DNA from: Pseudomonadota bacterium
Lineage (GTDB): Bacteria > Pseudomonadota > Gammaproteobacteria > UBA11654
NCBI GenBank assembly: GCA_029979325.1
Contig: JAPOHS010000044.1
Location: forward strand, 1-7,802
Direction of reading: 5' to 3'
DNA length: 7,802 nt
The notes beneath the pieces were generated by a model. That model ran no database searches. It saw only the letters and a list, made by a program, of their open reading frames with translations, and was not told the origin of the DNA. The translations under genes and the position numbers were made by a program. Shown piece by piece: positions 1,291-7,610 of this stretch (position 1 is the stretch's first letter; every line of letters starts with the position of its first letter).

Positions 1291-2343
1291 TTAGCTTCTG
1301 CTCCTTCTTCTGCTTCTTCTTTTTCTTTCTGCTTTTTTCTCAGGAATACTGGGATCAAGGTAGTTTTTTATCATCTGAATGTTGCCATCAGTCATTTTAC
1401 CCAAACTATCAATGACATCATCTAACTCGAATTTAACCGTTTCTGTATGATTTTCTAGAGCATCGCTCATCGTTTTAACATGAAGATGGGTTGTCCCACA
1501 GCATCCCCCAATTATTTTTGCACCTAAACTTCTTGCATATATAGCATATTGCGCCATCATCTCAGGAGTTCCGTCATATACTATTTCAGTGCCTCTGAAT
1601 TGTGGCATCCCACAATTTCCTTTGGCGACAATAAACTGATTGTTTCCCAAAGTTGATTGACTGAAACACATAATTGATCCAATAAGTTCTGCAGCACCTA
1701 TCCCACAATTTGCACCATATCCAATAACAACATCGCAATATTTATCTGAGAGAATAGCCAATTCTCTTGGCTCAAGGCCCATCATGGATTTTCCATGTGT
1801 ATCAAAACTGTAACTACATATTGTGGGTAAACCAGTTTTCACTGCAGCATTAATAGCAGCATCCATTTCTTCACTTGAGGACATGGTTTCTATCCAAAGT
1901 AAATCGGACCCGCCTTCTTTCAATGCTATTGCTTGGTCTGTGAAGGCAAGAATTGCATCCTCAATTGAAAGAGACCCTATTGGATGAAGTATTTCTCCTG
2001 TGGGGCCAATTGAGCCAGCCACCAATACTTTCTTTTTAGATGAGTCTGCATTTCTTCTGGCTATTTGAGCGGCTTCGAAATTAATGTCTCTCACTTTATC
2101 TTCAGAGTTATGAAGAGCTAGCCTATATTTGTTTGCACCAAAGGAATTAGTGAGAATTATATCAGAGCCAGCTTCTATGAAATTTTTGTGATTATTTGAT
2201 ACCAAATCTGGTTTCTCTTGGTTCCATAATTCAGGTGGATAACCAGACTCAAGACCCATATCAAATAAATTGGTTCCTGTTGCACCATCTGCAAGAAGAT
2301 AACCTTTTTTATTTATTAGATTTACTATTTCTTCAGCTAACAT
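1291..2343 (-). CDS. Zinc-dependent homocysteine S-methyltransferase (Bmt/MetH N-terminal-domain type)
   Basis: Transfers a methyl group to homocysteine to give methionine. The methyl donor is either betaine (Bmt activity) or the methylcobalamin of a partner corrinoid protein (split MetH). From ATG 2343 it has 350 residues: LLADGATGTNLF at 16-27, ILTNSFGAN at 63-71, VAGSIGPTGE at 108-117, LLWIETMSS at 148-156, and the three zinc-ligand cysteines, C213 in GANCGIG and C281/C282 in GGCCGTT. The tail (about 335-350) is strongly basic (KKAERKRRSRRRSRS). An in-frame TTG at 2382 would give 363 residues but lies against the T-run of a terminator, so I prefer the ATG, although its ribosome binding site is weak. 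First gene after a SAM riboswitch, which argues for methionine synthesis. Neighbouring folate methyltransferase and DUF1638 genes favour the split-MetH reading over plain betaine-homocysteine methyltransferase. Confidence 0.88.
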   Translation of the reverse strand: MLAEEIVNLINKKGYLLADGATGTNLFDMGLESGYPPELWNQEKPDLVSNNHKNFIEAGSDIILTNSFGANKYRLALHNSEDKVRDINFEAAQIARRNADSSKKKVLVAGSIGPTGEILHPIGSLSIEDAILAFTDQAIALKEGGSDLLWIETMSSSEEMDAAINAAVKTGLPTICSYSFDTHGKSMMGLEPRELAILSDKYCDVVIGYGANCGIGAAELIGSIMCFSQSTLGNNQFIVAKGNCGMPQFRGTEIVYDGTPEMMAQYAIYARSLGAKIIGGCCGTTHLHVKTMSDALENHTETVKFELDDVIDSLGKMTDGNIQMIKNYLDPSIPEKKAERKRRSRRRSRS

Positions 2344-2380: not shown

Positions 2381-2416
2381 AAAAAAAACCTGTTGGCTTA
2401 AAAAAGCTAACAGGTT
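2381..2416 (-). terminator. Rho-independent terminator in the leader of the homocysteine methyltransferase operon
   Basis: Plus-strand 2387-2398 (AACCTGTTGGCT) and 2405-2416 (AGCTAACAGGTT) form a 12-bp stem with one G-T mismatch (a G-U wobble on the plus-strand RNA, A-C on the minus) around a 6-nt loop. On the minus strand the stem is followed by eight T (2388-2381). It stands about 38 nt before the ATG at 2343 and after the SAM-II aptamer, the normal position for a riboswitch expression platform rather than an end-of-gene terminator, since no gene ends here. SAM binding is expected to favour this hairpin and switch the operon off. Confidence 0.82.
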
Positions 2417-2434
2417 AGTTAATTTTTATTAACT
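2417..2434 (-). other. AT-rich inverted repeat between aptamer and terminator
   Basis: AGTTAAT (2417-2423) and ATTAACT (2428-2434) are perfect 7-bp inverted repeats around four T. On the minus-strand RNA this small hairpin starts directly after the GGG that closes the aptamer and touches the 5' arm of the terminator stem. It could stack between the two or take part in an alternative fold. It is weak (mostly A-U), so its role is a guess. Confidence 0.4.
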
Positions 2435-2480
2435 CCCTTTTAGCGTTTTTATACACCTGCAAGTCGGTTTAAATCGGTGT
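2435..2480 (-). promoter_or_regulatory. SAM-II (SAM-alpha) riboswitch aptamer
   Basis: On the minus strand the order is P1 5' strand ACACC (2480-2476), loop GATTTAAACCGACTTGCA, P1 3' strand GGTGT (2457-2453), an A-rich linker, then GCTAAAAGGG (2444-2435). This reproduces the SAM-II layout: a short stem, a GATTT..CCG..TTGCA loop, and a downstream GCTAAA-GGG segment that folds back on the loop as an H-type pseudoknot. Possible pairs are CC with GG and TTGC with GC(T)AA. The aptamer is about 46 nt, as in the family. It precedes a terminator and a methionine-forming enzyme, the expected target of a SAM off-switch. SAM-V shares the same binding core and is the main alternative label. The consensus was recalled, not searched. 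Confidence 0.87.
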
Positions 2481-2493
2481 TATTGTTAATCGT

Positions 2494-2520: not shown

Positions 2521-2550
2521 AATTTTAGTCTCAACTTTAACTCTTTCTGG

Positions 2551-2578
2551 TGATTAGATAATTTGAAAGGATTATAAT
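2551..2578 (+). promoter_or_regulatory. Candidate promoter of the FAD oxidase gene
   Basis: A perfect TATAAT (2573-2578) lies 29 nt before the ATG at 2608. The -35 is poor: TGATTA at 2551-2556 with a 16-nt spacer is the best seen. The -10 sits in a palindromic TAATTATAATTA-like stretch that also reads TATAAT on the minus strand, so the divergent operon could share it. No Shine-Dalgarno sequence is visible before 2608. Confidence 0.4.
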
Positions 2579-2607: not shown

Positions 2608-3897
2608 ATGTCCTACGTTAAATCATATTATGCTGCCACAGCAAACCAAGATCTGAAATATGAGCAACTTAACTCAAATGTAAGAACTCAAGTGTGTGTG
2701 ATCGGCGGAGGTTTTACAGGACTCAATACAGCCATCAATCTCGCAAAGAAAGGTTACGATGTTGTTCTAATCGAATCCGAGAAGATTGGATGGGGAGCAA
2801 GCGGAAGGAATGGAGGACAACTCATCAGCGGGTTCTCTTTTAGCGACCATTTTGAGAAAAAAGGCACAAAAAATGATGTTCAAAATATTTGGCAGCTTGG
2901 TGCAATATCTGCTGATTTGGTAAGAGAAAGGGTTTCTGAATTTTCAATTGATTGTGACCTTAAGGAAGGGTTCATCGATGTCGCAACAAATAGAAAGCAC
3001 ATGGATGAATTGATCGATCGAGCAGGAGGATGGAAAGAGTCTGGATATCATCATGACTTGCAATTGGTTGATGAGACTGAAGTGAAGAAATACGTTAATA
3101 CTGATTCATATGTTGGCGGATTAATTGATTCAGGATCAGGGCATATTCACCCTCTTAATCTTTGTTTGGGAGAGGCAAAGGCAGCTTCAGAACTTGGAGT
3201 TATGATCTATGAGGATACCCATGCAGTTGAAATTTTCTCAGCAAGTCCAGCGAAAGTAGCCACAGGCAATGGGATTATCGAATCGGATTATATTGTCATT
3301 GCTGCTAATGCATACATTGGAGACTTGAATAAAAAACTGAGAAGAATGGTTATGCCCGCGGCGAGTTGTATCATCGCAACCGAGCCTTTAAGTAGTGAAT
3401 TAGCAGATAAAGTGATTCCATCCGACATGGCAGTTTGCGATCAAAATACAATTTTAGATTATTATCGCCTCTCGGCAGACAAGAGAATGTTGTTTGGTGG
3501 AAGGTTTAATTATTCAGGTAAAATCCCAAGTGACGATCGCATAAAGATTGAGATAAAGAAGAGGATGGTGTCTGTTTTCCCAGAGTTATCAGAAGTCAGA
3601 GTTGATTATGCATGGTCGGGGAATGTTGCAGTAAGCCTCAAGAAGATTCCTCAGTTAGGAAAAATAGCTAAGAATATTTTCTACTCTCAGGGTTACTCAG
3701 GACACGGCGTGGCTCCAACGCATATGGCAGCTAAAGTTATTGCTGATGCGATTGACGGAGACGACGAAGTCCTGAATACATTGTCATCTGTGAATCACAT
3801 TCAATTACCAGGCGGGAAATGGTTTTCCAGTCCAGCGACAGCCATTGGTATGATGTACTATCAGCTAAAGGATAAGATTGCGAATCTTTCTAGATAG
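2608..3897 (+). CDS. FAD-dependent amine oxidase/oxidoreductase of the DAO family (PuuB-like)
   Basis: A 429-residue flavoprotein whose length and pattern match the PuuB/gamma-glutamylputrescine oxidase branch of the DAO family. The dinucleotide-binding fold is N-terminal: VCVIGGGFTGLNTA at 29-42 with acidic E56 ending the second strand, then WGASGRNGGQL at 62-72, a flavin-contact motif of the branch. The C-terminal flavin region shows YAWSGNVA at 334-341 and GYSGHGVAPTH at 362-372. No signal peptide; cytosolic. Such enzymes oxidise secondary or primary amines with O2 or another acceptor. The substrate here is not determined: gamma-glutamylputrescine is the family default, but no other putrescine genes are visible, and an N-methylated amine would suit the neighbourhood (inference). 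It is divergent from the riboswitch operon and convergent with metF, overlapping its end by 8 bp. Codon use looks like the neighbours. Confidence 0.85.
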   Translation: MSYVKSYYAATANQDLKYEQLNSNVRTQVCVIGGGFTGLNTAINLAKKGYDVVLIESEKIGWGASGRNGGQLISGFSFSDHFEKKGTKNDVQNIWQLGAISADLVRERVSEFSIDCDLKEGFIDVATNRKHMDELIDRAGGWKESGYHHDLQLVDETEVKKYVNTDSYVGGLIDSGSGHIHPLNLCLGEAKAASELGVMIYEDTHAVEIFSASPAKVATGNGIIESDYIVIAANAYIGDLNKKLRRMVMPAASCIIATEPLSSELADKVIPSDMAVCDQNTILDYYRLSADKRMLFGGRFNYSGKIPSDDRIKIEIKKRMVSVFPELSEVRVDYAWSGNVAVSLKKIPQLGKIAKNIFYSQGYSGHGVAPTHMAAKVIADAIDGDDEVLNTLSSVNHIQLPGGKWFSSPATAIGMMYYQLKDKIANLSR

Positions 3898-4798
3898 ATA
3901 TTCCTGATCGCTTCACTGTTTCAGGTATTGCGGATAGATTTCTTGGCGCCATAAGGTGAGCCCCATGAACACCTTCAATTTCTTGGAATGACTCAATAAG
4001 TTCAGCACAAATATTTATCCCTTCCTGGATTTGATCGCCAGCACTCTCCATCCTTTTAACAATGGAGTCTGGCATAACTGTTCCAAATAACTTATCTCGC
4101 ATCCATTTTGCTGATTTATCGCTTCTTAGTGGGCCAATGCCGATGATGAAATAAAGCTTCTCAGATAGACCTGTTTCGACAATTCTTTGCATATACTTTT
4201 TTACCAGTTCCACGTCATAGCAAAACTGAGTTTGAATAAATCTTGCCCCAAAAGATGCTTTTTCATTCAAGGCCTTGGGTTCCCAGTTATCTTCAGGCTC
4301 ATGCAGAATTGCTGCACCTCCAGGAAAGAACATTGATTTTGTTTGTAGCTCCTTTCCTGACATTGTTTTTCCATCAGTATTCATCACATCCATGATTGAG
4401 AGTATGGTTTTAGAGTTGATATCAAAAACAGCTTTGGCGTCTTTTTGATCACCATTTTTTACAGGATCGCCAGCAAGGGTTAAGACATTATTAATGCCAA
4501 GAGCTGAAGCTCCCATTAGATCACTTTGTATTGCCAGTCTATTTCTATCTCTGCAAGTGATTTGAAGTATGGGATCAATACCTTGATTCCTGACAATTGC
4601 AGAGCCTGCAAGGCTGGACATATGTGCTGTCGCACCAGGGTTATCAGTAACATTTATTGCATGCACAGAACCTTTAAGGATTTTTATTTTCTCTTCCATT
4701 TCAGCCGATGATGCACTCACTGGAGCAGGTATTTCTGCAGTCACTGCAAAGCGACCTGACTCGAGAACATCTCTTAGTTGTTGATATTTTTCACTCAT
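3890..4798 (-). CDS. metF: Methylenetetrahydrofolate reductase (MetF family)
   Basis: Interconverts 5,10-methylene-THF and 5-methyl-THF using FAD in the cytosol. The 302-residue length is normal for the bacterial catalytic barrel. Visible landmarks: FAVTAEIPAP at 17-26, with E22 at the position of the catalytic glutamate; HAINVTDNPGA at 46-56; QITCRDRNR at 79-87 followed by QSDLMGASALGINNVLTLAGDP at about 91-112; and RFIQTQFCYD at 186-195, the folate/flavin strand with its glutamine. The CRDRNR-QSDLMGA and GDQKDAKAVFD pattern resembles the MetF type found with corrinoid methyltransferases and in C1 catabolism rather than enterobacterial MetF (from memory). Its ATG overlaps the transporter stop as ATGA (4798-4795), so the two are co-translated. 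It could supply methyl-THF for methionine or oxidise methyl-THF made by the DmdA-like enzyme; sequence alone does not decide the direction. Confidence 0.88.
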   Translation of the reverse strand: MSEKYQQLRDVLESGRFAVTAEIPAPVSASSAEMEEKIKILKGSVHAINVTDNPGATAHMSSLAGSAIVRNQGIDPILQITCRDRNRLAIQSDLMGASALGINNVLTLAGDPVKNGDQKDAKAVFDINSKTILSIMDVMNTDGKTMSGKELQTKSMFFPGGAAILHEPEDNWEPKALNEKASFGARFIQTQFCYDVELVKKYMQRIVETGLSEKLYFIIGIGPLRSDKSAKWMRDKLFGTVMPDSIVKRMESAGDQIQEGINICAELIESFQEIEGVHGAHLMAPRNLSAIPETVKRSGISI

Positions 4799-6288
4799 GC
4801 TTTTTCTTTCTTTATTAGAAGGCTTTTTAATAGTCCAGCAGCCATGATTATATACACAATCAGAAGAGGAGGTGAGATTAGAACAATAATTGTTTGAAAT
4901 GGTCTCAATTTATCGATGCCTTGAAGATCCGGCGAGTCTGTCACCCCAATTAATATAGCAAAGGGCAATAAGGCAATGAAGAAAGCCCAGAATATTCTGT
5001 TCCATACTTCTGGATTCTCACCTGCCTTCATTCTTTTTGTTGCAGATGAGGCCAAAGTGTAGGCACCAGAGTCAAAAGTAGTAGCCATAAAGACCAAGCA
5101 GAATATTCCAACCAGTGGCAAAATCCATGCCCCAAGAATCATGCTGGATACACTCCTAGAAACCATTACTGCTGGGCTCTCATCTGTCCATATTTCAATG
5201 ATTGGCATTATTCCATTGATCTCAAGATAGATCGCATTATTTCCCATGATCATAAAAAATAGAGAGGTTCCCATTGTCCCAAATCCAAGAGATCCCAGTA
5301 TCATTGCTCTGATTGTTCGACCCCTTGATATCCTTGCAATAAAGATACCTACAAATGGACCAAGGCCAAAAAACCAAGCCCACATGAATATAGTCCAAGC
5401 TTTTGAAAATTCAGATTCTCCAAACGGAGGAGGGCCCATGCTCATTCTCAGAAAATTTTCTCCAATAAAAAAAACACTTTGGATTGATGAATTGATGATG
5501 TAGGAAGTTGGCCCAAAGATGAGTATATATATCAGCACTATGAATGCTAGGTATGCACAAAACTTACTCAGTTTTTGAATGCCTTTTTCCAAGCCAAAAT
5601 ATGTGCTTATGGAGTAAATTACTAGGCAGAGCAATAGACATGAAATGGTTACAATCAAGCTTTGCTCAATCATGAAGAATTCAGTAATTGTTGCGCTCAC
5701 AACTGGCGAGGTAAGCCCCAGTCCTGCCCCCAAAACTCCAACTAGAGCGATCATATAAATCAGGTCAATAAGTTTAGCGAAGTGACTATTTTCACTGCTA
5801 TCAAATATGGCTTCACAACCTGTGCTCGCTTTTAGGCTTGTCGCCCCTCTAACATGGTAGTTGTATCCAATAGCAACCGCTGGGAAACAATAAATTGCCC
5901 AACCAGTGATGCCCCAATGAAACATTCCATATGATGAAGCCCAAGAGATGGCTTCCTTCGAGCCAGGAATTGCATTGAATGGTGGCCTAAGATAGTAATC
6001 GACCCATTCAGTTGATCCATAGAGCACAAGTGAAGCTCCAATACCGCAGCAAAAAAGCATGGAAGACCATCCAAAGGTGCCATATTCAGGTTTCTCACGT
6101 TCACTGCCTAGCCTTATTTTTCCATACTTACTGAAAGCCAGGAGCAAAAGAAAAATCAATGTTAAGAGACCCATGATCAAATAAGCACCGCCAATTTTGT
6201 TCGCGATGAGATCATATGCTGAATTCAAGTATTGATTTGTGGTGGTGGGGGCAATGAACATTGGTACAAGGATTGATAAAGATATCAA
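4795..6288 (-). CDS. BCCT-family transporter for a betaine-type osmolyte (glycine betaine/DMSP/carnitine)
   Basis: Inner-membrane carrier with about 12 hydrophobic segments. Family signatures: FCCGIGASLVLYGSTEW at 79-95 (TM3 glycine motif and sodium site region), MFHWGITGWAIY at 122-133 (TM4; W125, W130 and Y133 correspond to the BetP aromatic-box positions), WTIFMWAWFFGLGPFVG at 298-314 followed by IFIARISRGRTIR (BCCT signature), and TTFDSGAY at 403-410. The TTG at 6288 starts inside TM1. The frame stays open upstream and encodes IEWPNFILTV, a typical BCCT lead-in to TM1, after AAGGA at 6350-6346. The true start is therefore probably near 6339-6337 (an ATC codon; about 514 residues), or the sequence carries an error; no in-frame ATG exists between the stop at 6345-6343 and 6261. 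It is coupled to metF (ATGA overlap) and divergent from the DmdA-like gene, which suggests uptake of the demethylase substrate. Confidence 0.9.
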   Translation of the reverse strand: MISLSILVPMFIAPTTTNQYLNSAYDLIANKIGGAYLIMGLLTLIFLLLLAFSKYGKIRLGSEREKPEYGTFGWSSMLFCCGIGASLVLYGSTEWVDYYLRPPFNAIPGSKEAISWASSYGMFHWGITGWAIYCFPAVAIGYNYHVRGATSLKASTGCEAIFDSSENSHFAKLIDLIYMIALVGVLGAGLGLTSPVVSATITEFFMIEQSLIVTISCLLLCLVIYSISTYFGLEKGIQKLSKFCAYLAFIVLIYILIFGPTSYIINSSIQSVFFIGENFLRMSMGPPPFGESEFSKAWTIFMWAWFFGLGPFVGIFIARISRGRTIRAMILGSLGFGTMGTSLFFMIMGNNAIYLEINGIMPIIEIWTDESPAVMVSRSVSSMILGAWILPLVGIFCLVFMATTFDSGAYTLASSATKRMKAGENPEVWNRIFWAFFIALLPFAILIGVTDSPDLQGIDKLRPFQTIIVLISPPLLIVYIIMAAGLLKSLLIKKEKA

Positions 6289-6425: not shown

Positions 6426-6482
6426 ATGAAACCCTATTTTCCATTTCCTACGAATTTTAAGTATGATATCAGGTCGAAAATT

Positions 6483-7610
6483 ATGTATCAGACATCAAAA
6501 ATTGTAATCAGTCCAAGGGTCAGAAAATCGCCATATTTTGACTCCACGATGAAGCATGGAGCATCTGCTTTCACCATATATAACCACATGTACATGCCAA
6601 TTGTCTTTGAGGGGCCGGAAAAAGACTATGAGAACTTACTCAATGGTGTTCAACTCTGGGATGTAGGTGTAGAGCGACAAGTCGAAATCAAAGGGCCTGA
6701 TGCAGCAAAACTTTCTCAATACATCACTCCTCGAGACATCAATAAATGTCAAATTGGACAAGCTATGTATGCACCACTGCTCGATTTTGAAGGTGGTTTT
6801 ATCAATGATCCAGTGATGCTTAAACTTGCAGAAGATCATTTCTGGTTCTCACTTTCTGATAGTGATGCTCTCTTGTGGATTCAGGGTGTCGCTTCAGGCA
6901 AAAACTATGATACAGAGATTACAGAACCGGATGTTTCTCCCCTGCAGGTGCAAGGACCAAAATCAACAGAACTCATGAGCAGGGTATTTGGCGAATGGAT
7001 AGATGACCTCGCATTCTATAAATTTAGAGCAGTCAATCATCAAGGAATACCCATGGTAATAGCAAGAATGGGTTACAGCAGAGAAAGATGCTATGAGATT
7101 TTTCTCCAAGATGGAACCAAGGGAAATGAACTATGGGAAATACTTTGGGATGCAGGCAAAGAACTGAACATCACTCCAGGCACTCCAAATCAAATATTTA
7201 GACTGGAGGCAGGTATTCTCAGTTTTGGTGCTGACATGCATAGAGATAATAATCCTTTTGAGGTGGGTTTGGATTGGATGATAGATCTCGAACAACAAGA
7301 TGATTTTATTGGTAAAGAAGCACTCACAAGCATCAAGGAGAATGGGATAACAAAAAAATTAATGGGCGCTGAGATTCAAGGACCAAAAATGGAGTTTTTT
7401 AACGAAGAGAATTTGGATGTTTCTATCAATGGAGAAATAGTAGGCGCGATGATGTCCGCGGTTTACTCACCAAGATTTAAAAAGAATATATGTTATATCA
7501 TCCTTGATGTAGATCATGCCATTGTTGGTAAAACAGTTGACATTCATTCACCTGACGGCGATCTCAAAGCAGAACTCGTTGAGCTGCCCTGGATAAAAGA
7601 AAGAGCTTAA
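6483..7610 (+). CDS. DmdA-like aminomethyltransferase-fold demethylase (GcvT family), probable DMSP demethylase
   Basis: Expected to transfer a methyl group from a small methylated substrate (DMSP in true DmdA, giving methylmercaptopropionate) to THF. The 375 residues from ATG 6483 match DmdA length and its N-terminus (ISPRVRKSPY, then IYNHMYMPIVF). AGG at 6471-6473 is 9 nt upstream. ATG 6426 would add 19 residues with no family likeness. Motifs: VQLWDVGVERQVEIKGPDA at 56-74, PDVSPLQVQGPK at 149-160, ARMGYSRERCYEIFL at 194-208, FRLEAGILSFGADM at 239-252 and VGLDWMIDLEQ at 261-271. Versus my memory of SAR11/roseobacter DmdA, the segment ARSGWS..GGFEIY is changed (tryptophan to tyrosine, glycines lost), and the VGLDWMI segment is closer to generic GcvT relatives. 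Substrate is thus uncertain. The following DmdC-like gene (1-nt gap) and divergent BCCT carrier favour DMSP. Confidence 0.72.
   Translation: MYQTSKIVISPRVRKSPYFDSTMKHGASAFTIYNHMYMPIVFEGPEKDYENLLNGVQLWDVGVERQVEIKGPDAAKLSQYITPRDINKCQIGQAMYAPLLDFEGGFINDPVMLKLAEDHFWFSLSDSDALLWIQGVASGKNYDTEITEPDVSPLQVQGPKSTELMSRVFGEWIDDLAFYKFRAVNHQGIPMVIARMGYSRERCYEIFLQDGTKGNELWEILWDAGKELNITPGTPNQIFRLEAGILSFGADMHRDNNPFEVGLDWMIDLEQQDDFIGKEALTSIKENGITKKLMGAEIQGPKMEFFNEENLDVSINGEIVGAMMSAVYSPRFKKNICYIILDVDHAIVGKTVDIHSPDGDLKAELVELPWIKERA

What the first reader, a model, noticed from the sequence alone, without database searches (positions are those of the whole stretch)
2381..2480. SAM-II riboswitch plus terminator controls a split methionine synthase operon
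Seen: a P1 stem ACACC/GGTGT, the GATTT..CCG..TTGCA loop, GCTAAAAGGG, and a 12-bp hairpin with eight T just before the homocysteine methyltransferase start. Known: SAM-II aptamers bind SAM and repress methionine and SAM genes, typically metA/metX/metC-type genes in alphaproteobacteria. Inference: the entire bmt-DUF1638-Virulence_fact-MeTr operon is under SAM feedback, which marks these genes as methionine-biosynthetic.
Basis: partly seen in the sequence, partly recalled or inferred. Interest (0 to 1): 0.75.

Follow-up and report, generated by a model that had tools for sequence, protein, structure and literature searches.

The report
SAM-II switch on methionine synthase operon
A short RNA switch of a known kind, which senses S-adenosylmethionine, sits in front of the genes for a split, vitamin-B12-type methionine synthase in an ocean bacterium and probably turns them off when the cell has enough.

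Summary
On the minus strand, 2480-2381, lie a SAM-II aptamer and an intrinsic terminator, 37 nt before the homocysteine methyltransferase (mtgE) start at 2343. Rfam SAM_alpha gives only 16 bits (cut-off 36), but a covariance model built from nine leaders, without the window and its closest relative in that set, finds the element at 44.4 bits, E 4e-7, and finds 30 of 30 loci fetched from strong SAM_alpha hits. P1 and pseudoknot covary. No SAM-V match. The nearest relatives are marine gammaproteobacteria, not alphas. In 10 genomes picked only for mtgE, a SAM-II lies directly before mtgE or metF-mtgE in nine; the tenth is broken by contig ends. Related aptamers precede metY, metF, hom, metA and another homocysteine methyltransferase gene. 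The GCUAAAAGGG strand can pair in the pseudoknot or with the terminator's 5' arm (antiterminator), which suggests an OFF switch by attenuation; the folding support is good for the window, mixed across relatives. In seven relatives the operon runs on through mtgD to a RamA-type activase. SAM-II attenuators are known; I found no paper on this target operon. Binding and termination were not tested.

The parts
2419..2488 (-). SAM-II aptamer as aligned to Rfam SAM_alpha (16.0 bits); models R1 and R2 place it at 2485-2428
2476..2480 (-). P1 5' strand ACACC
   Evidence: P1 covariation
2453..2457 (-). P1 3' strand GGTGT
   Evidence: P1 covariation
2458..2475 (-). loop with the conserved GATTT, CC(G) and CTTGCA; CC (2467-2466) is the 5' side of the pseudoknot
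2435..2444 (-). GCTAAAAGGG: pseudoknot strand in the bound state, antiterminator strand in the free state (the two states are inferred)
2429..2452 (-). antiterminator, 5' strand (includes GCTAAAAGGG and AGTTAA)
2399..2422 (-). antiterminator, 3' strand; overlaps the 5' arm of the terminator
2387..2416 (-). intrinsic terminator hairpin, 12 pairs and one mismatch, loop TTTT
2381..2388 (-). run of eight T after the hairpin (first two also pair in the stem)
1291..2343 (-). mtgE/bmt, homocysteine methyltransferase module (PF02574; NCBIfam NF005718), 350 aa
622..1215 (-). DUF1638 protein (PF07796), 197 aa
316..621 (-). PF13769 'Virulence_fact' small protein, 101 aa
3..311 (-). mtgD, pterin-binding methyltransferase (PF00809), cut by the window edge

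Best explanation
A SAM-II riboswitch controls transcription of the mtgE-DUF1638-PF13769-mtgD(-ramA) operon by attenuation. Without SAM, the 3' strand of the aptamer (GCUAAAAGGG...) pairs with the 5' arm of the terminator, forming an antiterminator, and RNA polymerase reads into the operon. With SAM, that strand is locked in the pseudoknot with the CC of the P1 loop, the terminator arm is free, the hairpin followed by U's forms before the start codon, and transcription stops. The result is end-product feedback of SAM on homocysteine methylation. Shown here by sequence: aptamer, covariation, terminator, complementarity, conserved gene context. Inferred: that SAM binds, that termination responds to it, and that the genes form one transcript.
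For: Model R2, without the window and L014, finds the site at 44.4 bits, E 4e-7 and finds 30 of 30 loci fetched from high-scoring Rfam SAM_alpha hits, at 22.9-34.1 bits. On 50 rows P1 has 5 of 6 pairs with changes on both sides, the pseudoknot 2 of 3; covariation score 0.389 against 0.190 in shuffles, 0 of 500 as high, slid versions at most 0.129. Of 10 genomes chosen only because they encode a MtgE relative, SAM-II lies directly before mtgE or metF-mtgE in nine (six on one contig, three across contig ends that overlap by 55, 55 and 141 bases); the tenth, G006, has one at a contig end without overlap. 36 of the 49 aptamers followed downstream (window included) precede methionine-pathway genes. 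Antiterminator: 16 nt, 88% complementary; in the ensemble up to the T run, 9 of the 13 bases of the terminator 5' arm pair upstream with probability 0.68-0.93, and all 13 have 0.00-0.07 for the terminator. 29 of 44 distinct leaders have a terminator-like hairpin, and their arms pair with their own aptamer strand better than permuted arms (mean -9.74 against -8.43 kcal/mol, 2 of 5000 permutations as low).
Against: Rfam SAM_alpha stays far below its cut-off (16.0 of 36 bits). The minimum-energy fold shows the antiterminator (5 or more pairs) in only 13 of 35 leaders with a U6 run; in 21 of the other 22 the terminator stands even without SAM (its window row ended at a T run inside the loop, and stands for it). 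In the window's full-length minimum-energy fold P1 is not formed together with the antiterminator; it is when the terminator's 3' arm is not yet made. The window's own terminator arm ranks only 12th of 29 for its aptamer strand, and the permutation test ignores relatedness. The outer P1 position and one of three pseudoknot pairs are not standard pairs in the window. In L016 the own arm ranks 28th of 29. 13 of 49 aptamers were not tied to a target, three of them at contig ends. The number of further pair types is no higher than in shuffles (402 of 500 as high). The 75-nt gap between mtgE and DUF1638 could hold a second promoter; not tested.
Confidence: 0.85

Rival explanations
1. The aptamer is real but acts mainly on translation or on mRNA stability, and the hairpin is a constitutive attenuator or an RNA end that yields a small RNA.
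For: 15 of 44 distinct leaders show no terminator-like hairpin by the rule, 13 of them with aptamers of 48% G+C or more, so other platforms probably exist (the rule did see hairpins in L062, L068 and, at +81, L077 of these). Most leaders keep the terminator in the minimum-energy fold without ligand. In S. meliloti a SAM-II (metA) acts on translation at a distance, with a terminator that could not be linked to an antiterminator (PMC9373788, passages).
Against: In the window the aptamer strand is complementary to the terminator arm, and the start codon lies 37 nt beyond the T run, outside the aptamer. The three leaders aligned (window, L001, L065) keep the aptamer, the complementary arm and the hairpin.
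Confidence: 0.11
2. A plain terminator or a structured leader without ligand, with chance likeness to SAM-II.
For: Sub-threshold Rfam score; an sRNA family (GibS) has a better E-value in the same scan, 0.055 against 0.23, also far below its own cut-off.
Against: Motif absent from 200 shuffles; model hit without the window and covariation; recurring place before methionine genes.
Confidence: 0.02
3. The aptamer controls mtgE only; DUF1638, PF13769 and mtgD are expressed from their own promoter in the 75-nt gap and serve glycine betaine demethylation as well. (This rival concerns reach and can hold together with the best explanation.)
For: In G004, G009 and G010 (G006 undecided) mtgE has the SAM-II while mtgD and PF13769 sit beside mtgC and mtgB on another contig. 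Betaine growth raised MtgBCD but not MtgE in Ruegeria (PMC12478193, passages).
Against: DUF1638, PF13769, mtgD and ramA follow mtgE in this order in seven relatives (G001, G002, G003, G005, G008, G011, G015), the first three of them also in the window; in G003, G008 and G015 mtgC has joined them inside the operon.
Confidence: 0.2

Closest known systems
SAM-II (SAM_alpha, RF00521) riboswitches before metY/metA/metX in alphaproteobacteria
   Same: Aptamer layout, conserved core, pseudoknot, and frequent coupling to intrinsic terminators (PMC2258182 and PMC4239095, passages).
   Different: Gammaproteobacterial relatives, A+T-rich sequence under the Rfam cut-off, and a different target operon.
Tandem SAM-II/SAM-V leader of bhmT in 'Candidatus Pelagibacter ubique'
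   Same: SAM-II plus terminator before a homocysteine methyltransferase gene in an ocean bacterium (PMC2704228, PMC5069961, PMC11508383; passages).
   Different: No SAM-V match here; SAR11 BhmT is described as the human-like betaine enzyme (PMC12478193, passages), whereas this protein matches MetH homocysteine domains (E 1e-44) better than human BHMT (9e-12) among solved structures and lies in a B12-type operon.
Split methionine synthase / MtgBCDE system of Phaeobacter and Ruegeria
   Same: Same modules: MtgE, MtgD, DUF1638, RamA-like activase (PMC5764234, PMC12478193; passages).
   Different: The one mention of 'riboswitch' in PMC12478193 is a reference title and PMC5764234 has none; here the modules are gathered behind one SAM-II leader.

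Membership tests
SAM-II riboswitch | P1 stem closing a loop with GAUUU and UUGCA (features as I recall them and as in the Rfam consensus) | tested here: met
   5 standard pairs in the window; 92.9% of P1 cells paired and 5 of 6 pairs changed on both sides over 50 rows
SAM-II riboswitch | Pseudoknot between the P1 loop and the strand after GCUAAA | tested here: met
   2 of 3 pairs changed on both sides, 74.1% of cells paired; window forms 2 of 3. A first count with shifted columns (45.6% of cells paired) was an error and was replaced
SAM-II riboswitch | Recognised by the same profile as accepted SAM-II members | tested here: met
   R2 finds the window (44.4 bits) and 30 of 30 RF00521-derived loci; L061, before an mtgE, passes both R2 (58.3 bits) and the Rfam cut-off (37.7 bits)
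SAM-II riboswitch | Rfam RF00521 gathering score (a library threshold, not a property of the molecule) | tested here: not met
   16.0 of 36 bits; the cut-off was reached in only 4 of 40 sources scanned (window included; L011 and L054 are the same place), all of which hold an R1 or R2 site
SAM-II riboswitch | Binds SAM and discriminates SAH | not testable with these tools
   needs in-line probing or ITC
SAM-V riboswitch | Match to the Rfam SAM-V model near the start codon | tested here: not met
   no SAM-V among the 11 matches up to E 10 over 2330-2620
Intrinsic terminator | G+C-containing hairpin followed by a U run | tested here: met
   12 pairs, -13.7 kcal/mol, eight T
Split B12-dependent methionine synthase operon | Homocysteine, pterin and reactivation modules as separate genes | tested here: met
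   PF02574, PF07796 and PF00809 in the window; an activase with RACo domains in L002 and its homologue in six further relatives
Split B12-dependent methionine synthase operon | Corrinoid protein (mtgC) | tested here: inconclusive
   not in the window; beside mtgB in G001, G002, G005 and G011, inside the mtgE operon in G003, G008 and G015 (G008 has a second one beside mtgB)

The most novel reading that the evidence does not exclude
In this marine gammaproteobacterial clade the SAM-II switch gates a shared one-carbon hub: it represses mtgD, the activase, DUF1638 and PF13769, which the genome also needs for B12-dependent glycine betaine demethylation by MtgB-MtgC, so that SAM level sets how much betaine methyl enters folate as well as how much methionine is made; sister lineages escaped this by keeping mtgD and PF13769 in the mtgBC operon, or, in one case, by having a second mtgC for the methionine operon.
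Probability: 0.3. Interest if true: 0.62.

Novelty: new member of a known kind. Interest (0 to 1): 0.45.

Why it matters
It adds the split methionine synthase, including the poorly understood DUF1638 and PF13769 proteins, to the candidate targets of SAM-II; shows a SAM-II regulon (metY, metF, hom, metA, mtgE) in gammaproteobacterial relatives that Rfam's cut-off mostly misses; and makes the link between SAM status and methyl-folate use in ocean bacteria directly testable.

Tried and rejected
SAM-V and other Rfam classes: no match at gathering score in the window; at relaxed threshold the 11 matches, SAM_alpha among them, are all below their cut-offs. Alphaproteobacterial origin: rejected, the 10 MtgE relatives found are titled as gammaproteobacterial or Woeseiaceae contigs, 55-83% identity (the scan finds close relatives only). 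TTG start at 2382: rejected, it lies at the T run, and the 350-aa form matches L001 from its first residues. Whole genome of the window: none held. First pseudoknot columns on the 50-row alignment were one off and were redone. One terminator rule found hairpins in 28 of 45 leaders, a second in 29 of 44; each misses some that the other sees. RF00521 over 398 genomes of the phylum: 83 with a match, 69 over the cut-off; of the 30 loci fetched, none had MtgE in the 1.5 kb downstream, 22 had a MetY or MetA homologue and 8 no match to my six queries. Only the best-scoring loci were fetched, so this does not exclude SAM-II before mtgE in alphas. Tandem SAM-II with SAM-I/IV looked new but is already described (PMC9481103, passages).

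Whether the split synthase is the only methionine synthase of these bacteria stays open: PF01717 (MetE-like) proteins, mostly of 342-367 aa, occur in 8 of 12 genomes, and G002 has a 1220-aa protein with B12-binding and MtgD-like parts.

Rows chosen or dropped: the 11 aptamers of A2 are the window and 10 of the 23 places, picked by eye for a P1 stem and the full core, so the 11-row count is biased towards P1; the other 13 places were not used. The 49 aptamers are all 47 R1 matches, the one of G009 (L026) and the window. Near-identical leaders (L051, L057, L082, L083) and L062b were left out of the 44.

Full report
What is there. The minus strand of 2488-2381 holds P1 (ACACC/GGTGT), a loop with GATTT, CCG and CTTGCA, the strand GCTAAAAGGG, then a hairpin with eight T and, 37 nt further, the ATG of a 350-aa homocysteine methyltransferase. 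The motif does not occur in 200 dinucleotide shuffles of the window. The following genes on the same strand are DUF1638 (after 75 nt), PF13769 and a pterin-binding protein cut by the window edge.

Is it SAM-II? Rfam SAM_alpha aligns over its whole length at 2488-2419 but scores 16.0 bits, below the cut-off of 36. This looks like a matter of lineage. From 10 genomes found only through the protein, a motif pattern gave 23 places; 10 of them, picked by eye, and the window were aligned and gave model R1. Model R2 comes from nine of the 11 rows, without the window and L014, its closest relative in the set. R2 finds the window at 44.4 bits, E 4e-7, and finds 30 of 30 loci fetched from strong RF00521 hits, inside the RF00521 match. 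L061, which stands before an mtgE, passes both R2 (58.3 bits) and the Rfam cut-off (37.7 bits). Of 40 sources scanned with Rfam, each holding an R1 or R2 site, only 4 reached the SAM_alpha cut-off (L055, L061, L074, L077), and G001, the genome of the closest relative, gave no match in the RF00521 genome search. No SAM-V match was seen.

Covariation. On the 11 hand-picked sequences the named structure has 88.9% paired cells and a covariation score of 0.461 against 0.226 in shuffles, 0 of 500 as high. On 50 matches of R2 (49 whole aptamers and one fragment, L004, which repeats part of L052; a few are near-identical, for example L050/L051 and L081/L082/L083) it is 86.6% and 0.389 against 0.190, 0 of 500 as high, and the slid versions reach at most 0.129; 5 of 6 P1 pairs and 2 of 3 pseudoknot pairs show changes on both sides. 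The number of further pair types does not exceed the shuffles (402 of 500 as high). The alignment was fitted to P1, so P1 counts lean towards it; the pseudoknot was not in the model. In the window the outer P1 position and the outer pseudoknot position are not paired. The shuffles do not allow for relatedness.

Context. Over 196 genomes related to G001, 34 have an R1 match at E up to 0.001, 47 matches in all. Of the 49 aptamers followed downstream (these 47, L026 and the window), 9 lead into mtgE, 2 into metF followed by mtgE, 3 more into mtgE or metF-mtgE across overlapping contig ends, 5 into metF, 7 into metY, 6 into a hom-like gene, 1 into metA, 3 into another PF02574 protein, and 13 into nothing that my six queries recognise, three of these lying at contig ends. 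The query proteins carry PF01053 (metY), PF00696 with PF03447 (hom-like), PF04204 (metA), PF02574 and PF02219 (metF); the gene names beyond these families are recalled. Among the 10 genomes chosen for MtgE alone, nine have the aptamer directly before mtgE or metF-mtgE; in G010 the mtgE match covers only residues 168-332. G006 is undecided.

Operon. mtgE, DUF1638, PF13769, mtgD and a RACo/RamA-type activase follow one another in seven relatives: L001 (G001), L002 (G002), L003 (G003), L005 (G005) and L008 (G008), and G011 and G015; in the five loci a Rieske oxygenase comes next (Pfam names for L002). The other five of the ten loci hold mtgE without these neighbours. In L002, L005 and L008 metF comes between the aptamer and mtgE. 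MtgC lies between mtgE and DUF1638 in L003, L008 and G015; in G001, G002, G005 and G011 it lies beside mtgB instead, and G008 has both. mtgD has one place in each of 11 of 12 genomes (G007 none; in G008 it reads as two adjacent pieces; a second G002 hit is a 1220-aa protein at 35% identity): in the mtgE operon in seven, and beside mtgB-mtgC in G004, G006, G009 and G010, where a PF13769 relative (43-45%) sits between mtgC and mtgD. So PF13769 stays near mtgD in 11 of 11 genomes, whichever operon mtgD is in; this is new support, by neighbourhood only, for a role of PF13769 with the corrinoid/pterin part. PF06253 (MtgB-type) proteins occur in 12 of 12; their substrate was not tested. R2 finds no aptamer in 10 mtgB loci at E up to 0.01 (one weak match at 0.059, in L151; L154 is cut by its contig end) and, in 13 B12-protein loci (12 of MtgC size), only the one that belongs to mtgE of G015.

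Mechanism. The strand that makes the pseudoknot is also complementary to the terminator's 5' arm: 2436-2451 with 2399-2414, 16 nt, 88%. In the fold up to the T run the minimum-energy structure has this antiterminator (-25.8 kcal/mol) but not P1; keeping the aptamer strand free gives P1 and the terminator at -19.7. Before the terminator's 3' arm is made, P1 and antiterminator form together at -20.3. SAM and the pseudoknot, which this method cannot score, would have to make up the difference, or the choice is made kinetically as the RNA emerges. Across leaders the picture is mixed: 29 of 44 have a terminator-like hairpin and own arms pair better than permuted arms, yet only 13 of 35 minimum-energy folds show the antiterminator with 5 or more pairs. 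SAM-II was described as the one class most often associated with terminators in alpha- and betaproteobacteria, where other classes mostly act on translation (PMC2258182, passages), and the metZ SAM-II of S. meliloti is predicted to act by termination, with data in line (PMC9373788, passages).

What is known and what is not. [quoted passage not shown] PMC4239095 found SAM_alpha only in Rhizobiales and Rhodobacterales, with metY as core target; PMC2258182 has SAM-II in alpha- and gammaproteobacteria and Bacteroidetes and speaks of betaproteobacterial ones; PMC2704228 and PMC5069961 describe SAM-II before bhmT in SAR11. Searches for DUF1638 with methionine, SAM-II with Gammaproteobacteria, SAM-II with betaine-homocysteine, riboswitch with split methionine synthase and SAM-II riboswitch with methionine synthase, cobalamin and marine gave no title or passage that reports this pairing; four of the listed papers were not opened (PMC4137082, PMC4684408, PMC5100602, PMC12542648), and the library lacks most subscription journals and preprints.

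Verdict. A SAM-II leader with a terminator, very probably an attenuator, on a target operon that I did not find described, in a gammaproteobacterial lineage that Rfam's threshold mostly misses. The kind is known; the interest lies in the regulon and in the way the mtg modules are divided between SAM-controlled and other operons.

Noticed in passing
window 6426-7610 (+) and 7612 onward (+): A DMSP demethylase (DmdA, NCBIfam NF009133, 411.8 bits against cut-off 410), then the start of an ORF without a Pfam match in its 63 residues; by recall it resembles the dehydrogenase DmdC. DmdA makes methyl-folate (recalled), a substrate for the mtgD/mtgE route.
   Followed up: partly
window 3890-6288 (-): An MTHFR and a BCCT transporter gene, overlapping by four bases on the strand of mtgE; both are kept together with DmdA in L002 and L005: an osmolyte uptake and one-carbon block beside the riboswitch operon.
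   Followed up: partly
window 2536-2568: A noncoding block between the FAD oxidoreductase and mtgE (TTTAACTCTTTCTGGTGATTAGATAATTTGAAA on +) is well conserved in L001 and L065, outside the aptamer; perhaps a promoter or protein site.
   Followed up: no
window 2608-3897 (+): The divergent neighbour is a DAO-type FAD oxidoreductase; in SAR11 an OrdL oxidoreductase gene also lies near the SAM-controlled bhmT (PMC5069961 passages).
   Followed up: no
L080 1477-1268, L012 267-71, L059 1562-1356 (minus strands): SAM-II, terminator-like hairpin, then SAM-I/IV in tandem, before metY in L080. The arrangement is known from seven examples in PMC9481103.
   Followed up: partly
L062 1121-1183 and 1226-1290; L075: Two SAM-II aptamers in a row in L062, which also has a SAM-I/IV at 2436-2541; L075 has a SAM-I (S box) at 1646-1775 on the other strand than its SAM-II. 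[quoted passage not shown]
   Followed up: no
L065 about 640-725: The terminator after the SAM-II is duplicated almost exactly, two hairpins with T runs in series before mtgE.
   Followed up: no
L016 (G007): In this mtgE leader CAACGC in the terminator hairpin is complementary to GCGTTG of the P1 5' side, while pairing with the GCUAAA strand is poor: a possible different antiterminator, seen by eye.
   Followed up: no
L061 2033-2135 and G015: A PYLIS_3 (pyrrolysine insertion, mttB) match just over its cut-off (40.6 against 38 bits), and 12 MTTB pieces in the same genome, three with stops inside.
   Followed up: no
12 relative genomes: PF01717 (MetE-like) proteins, mostly 342-367 aa, in 8 of 12 genomes; possible second methionine-forming enzyme.
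   Followed up: no
G004, G006, G009, G010 (L166, L165, L164, L167): A PF13769 relative at 43-45% identity lies between mtgC and mtgD away from mtgE, so PF13769 goes with mtgD in both arrangements.
   Followed up: partly
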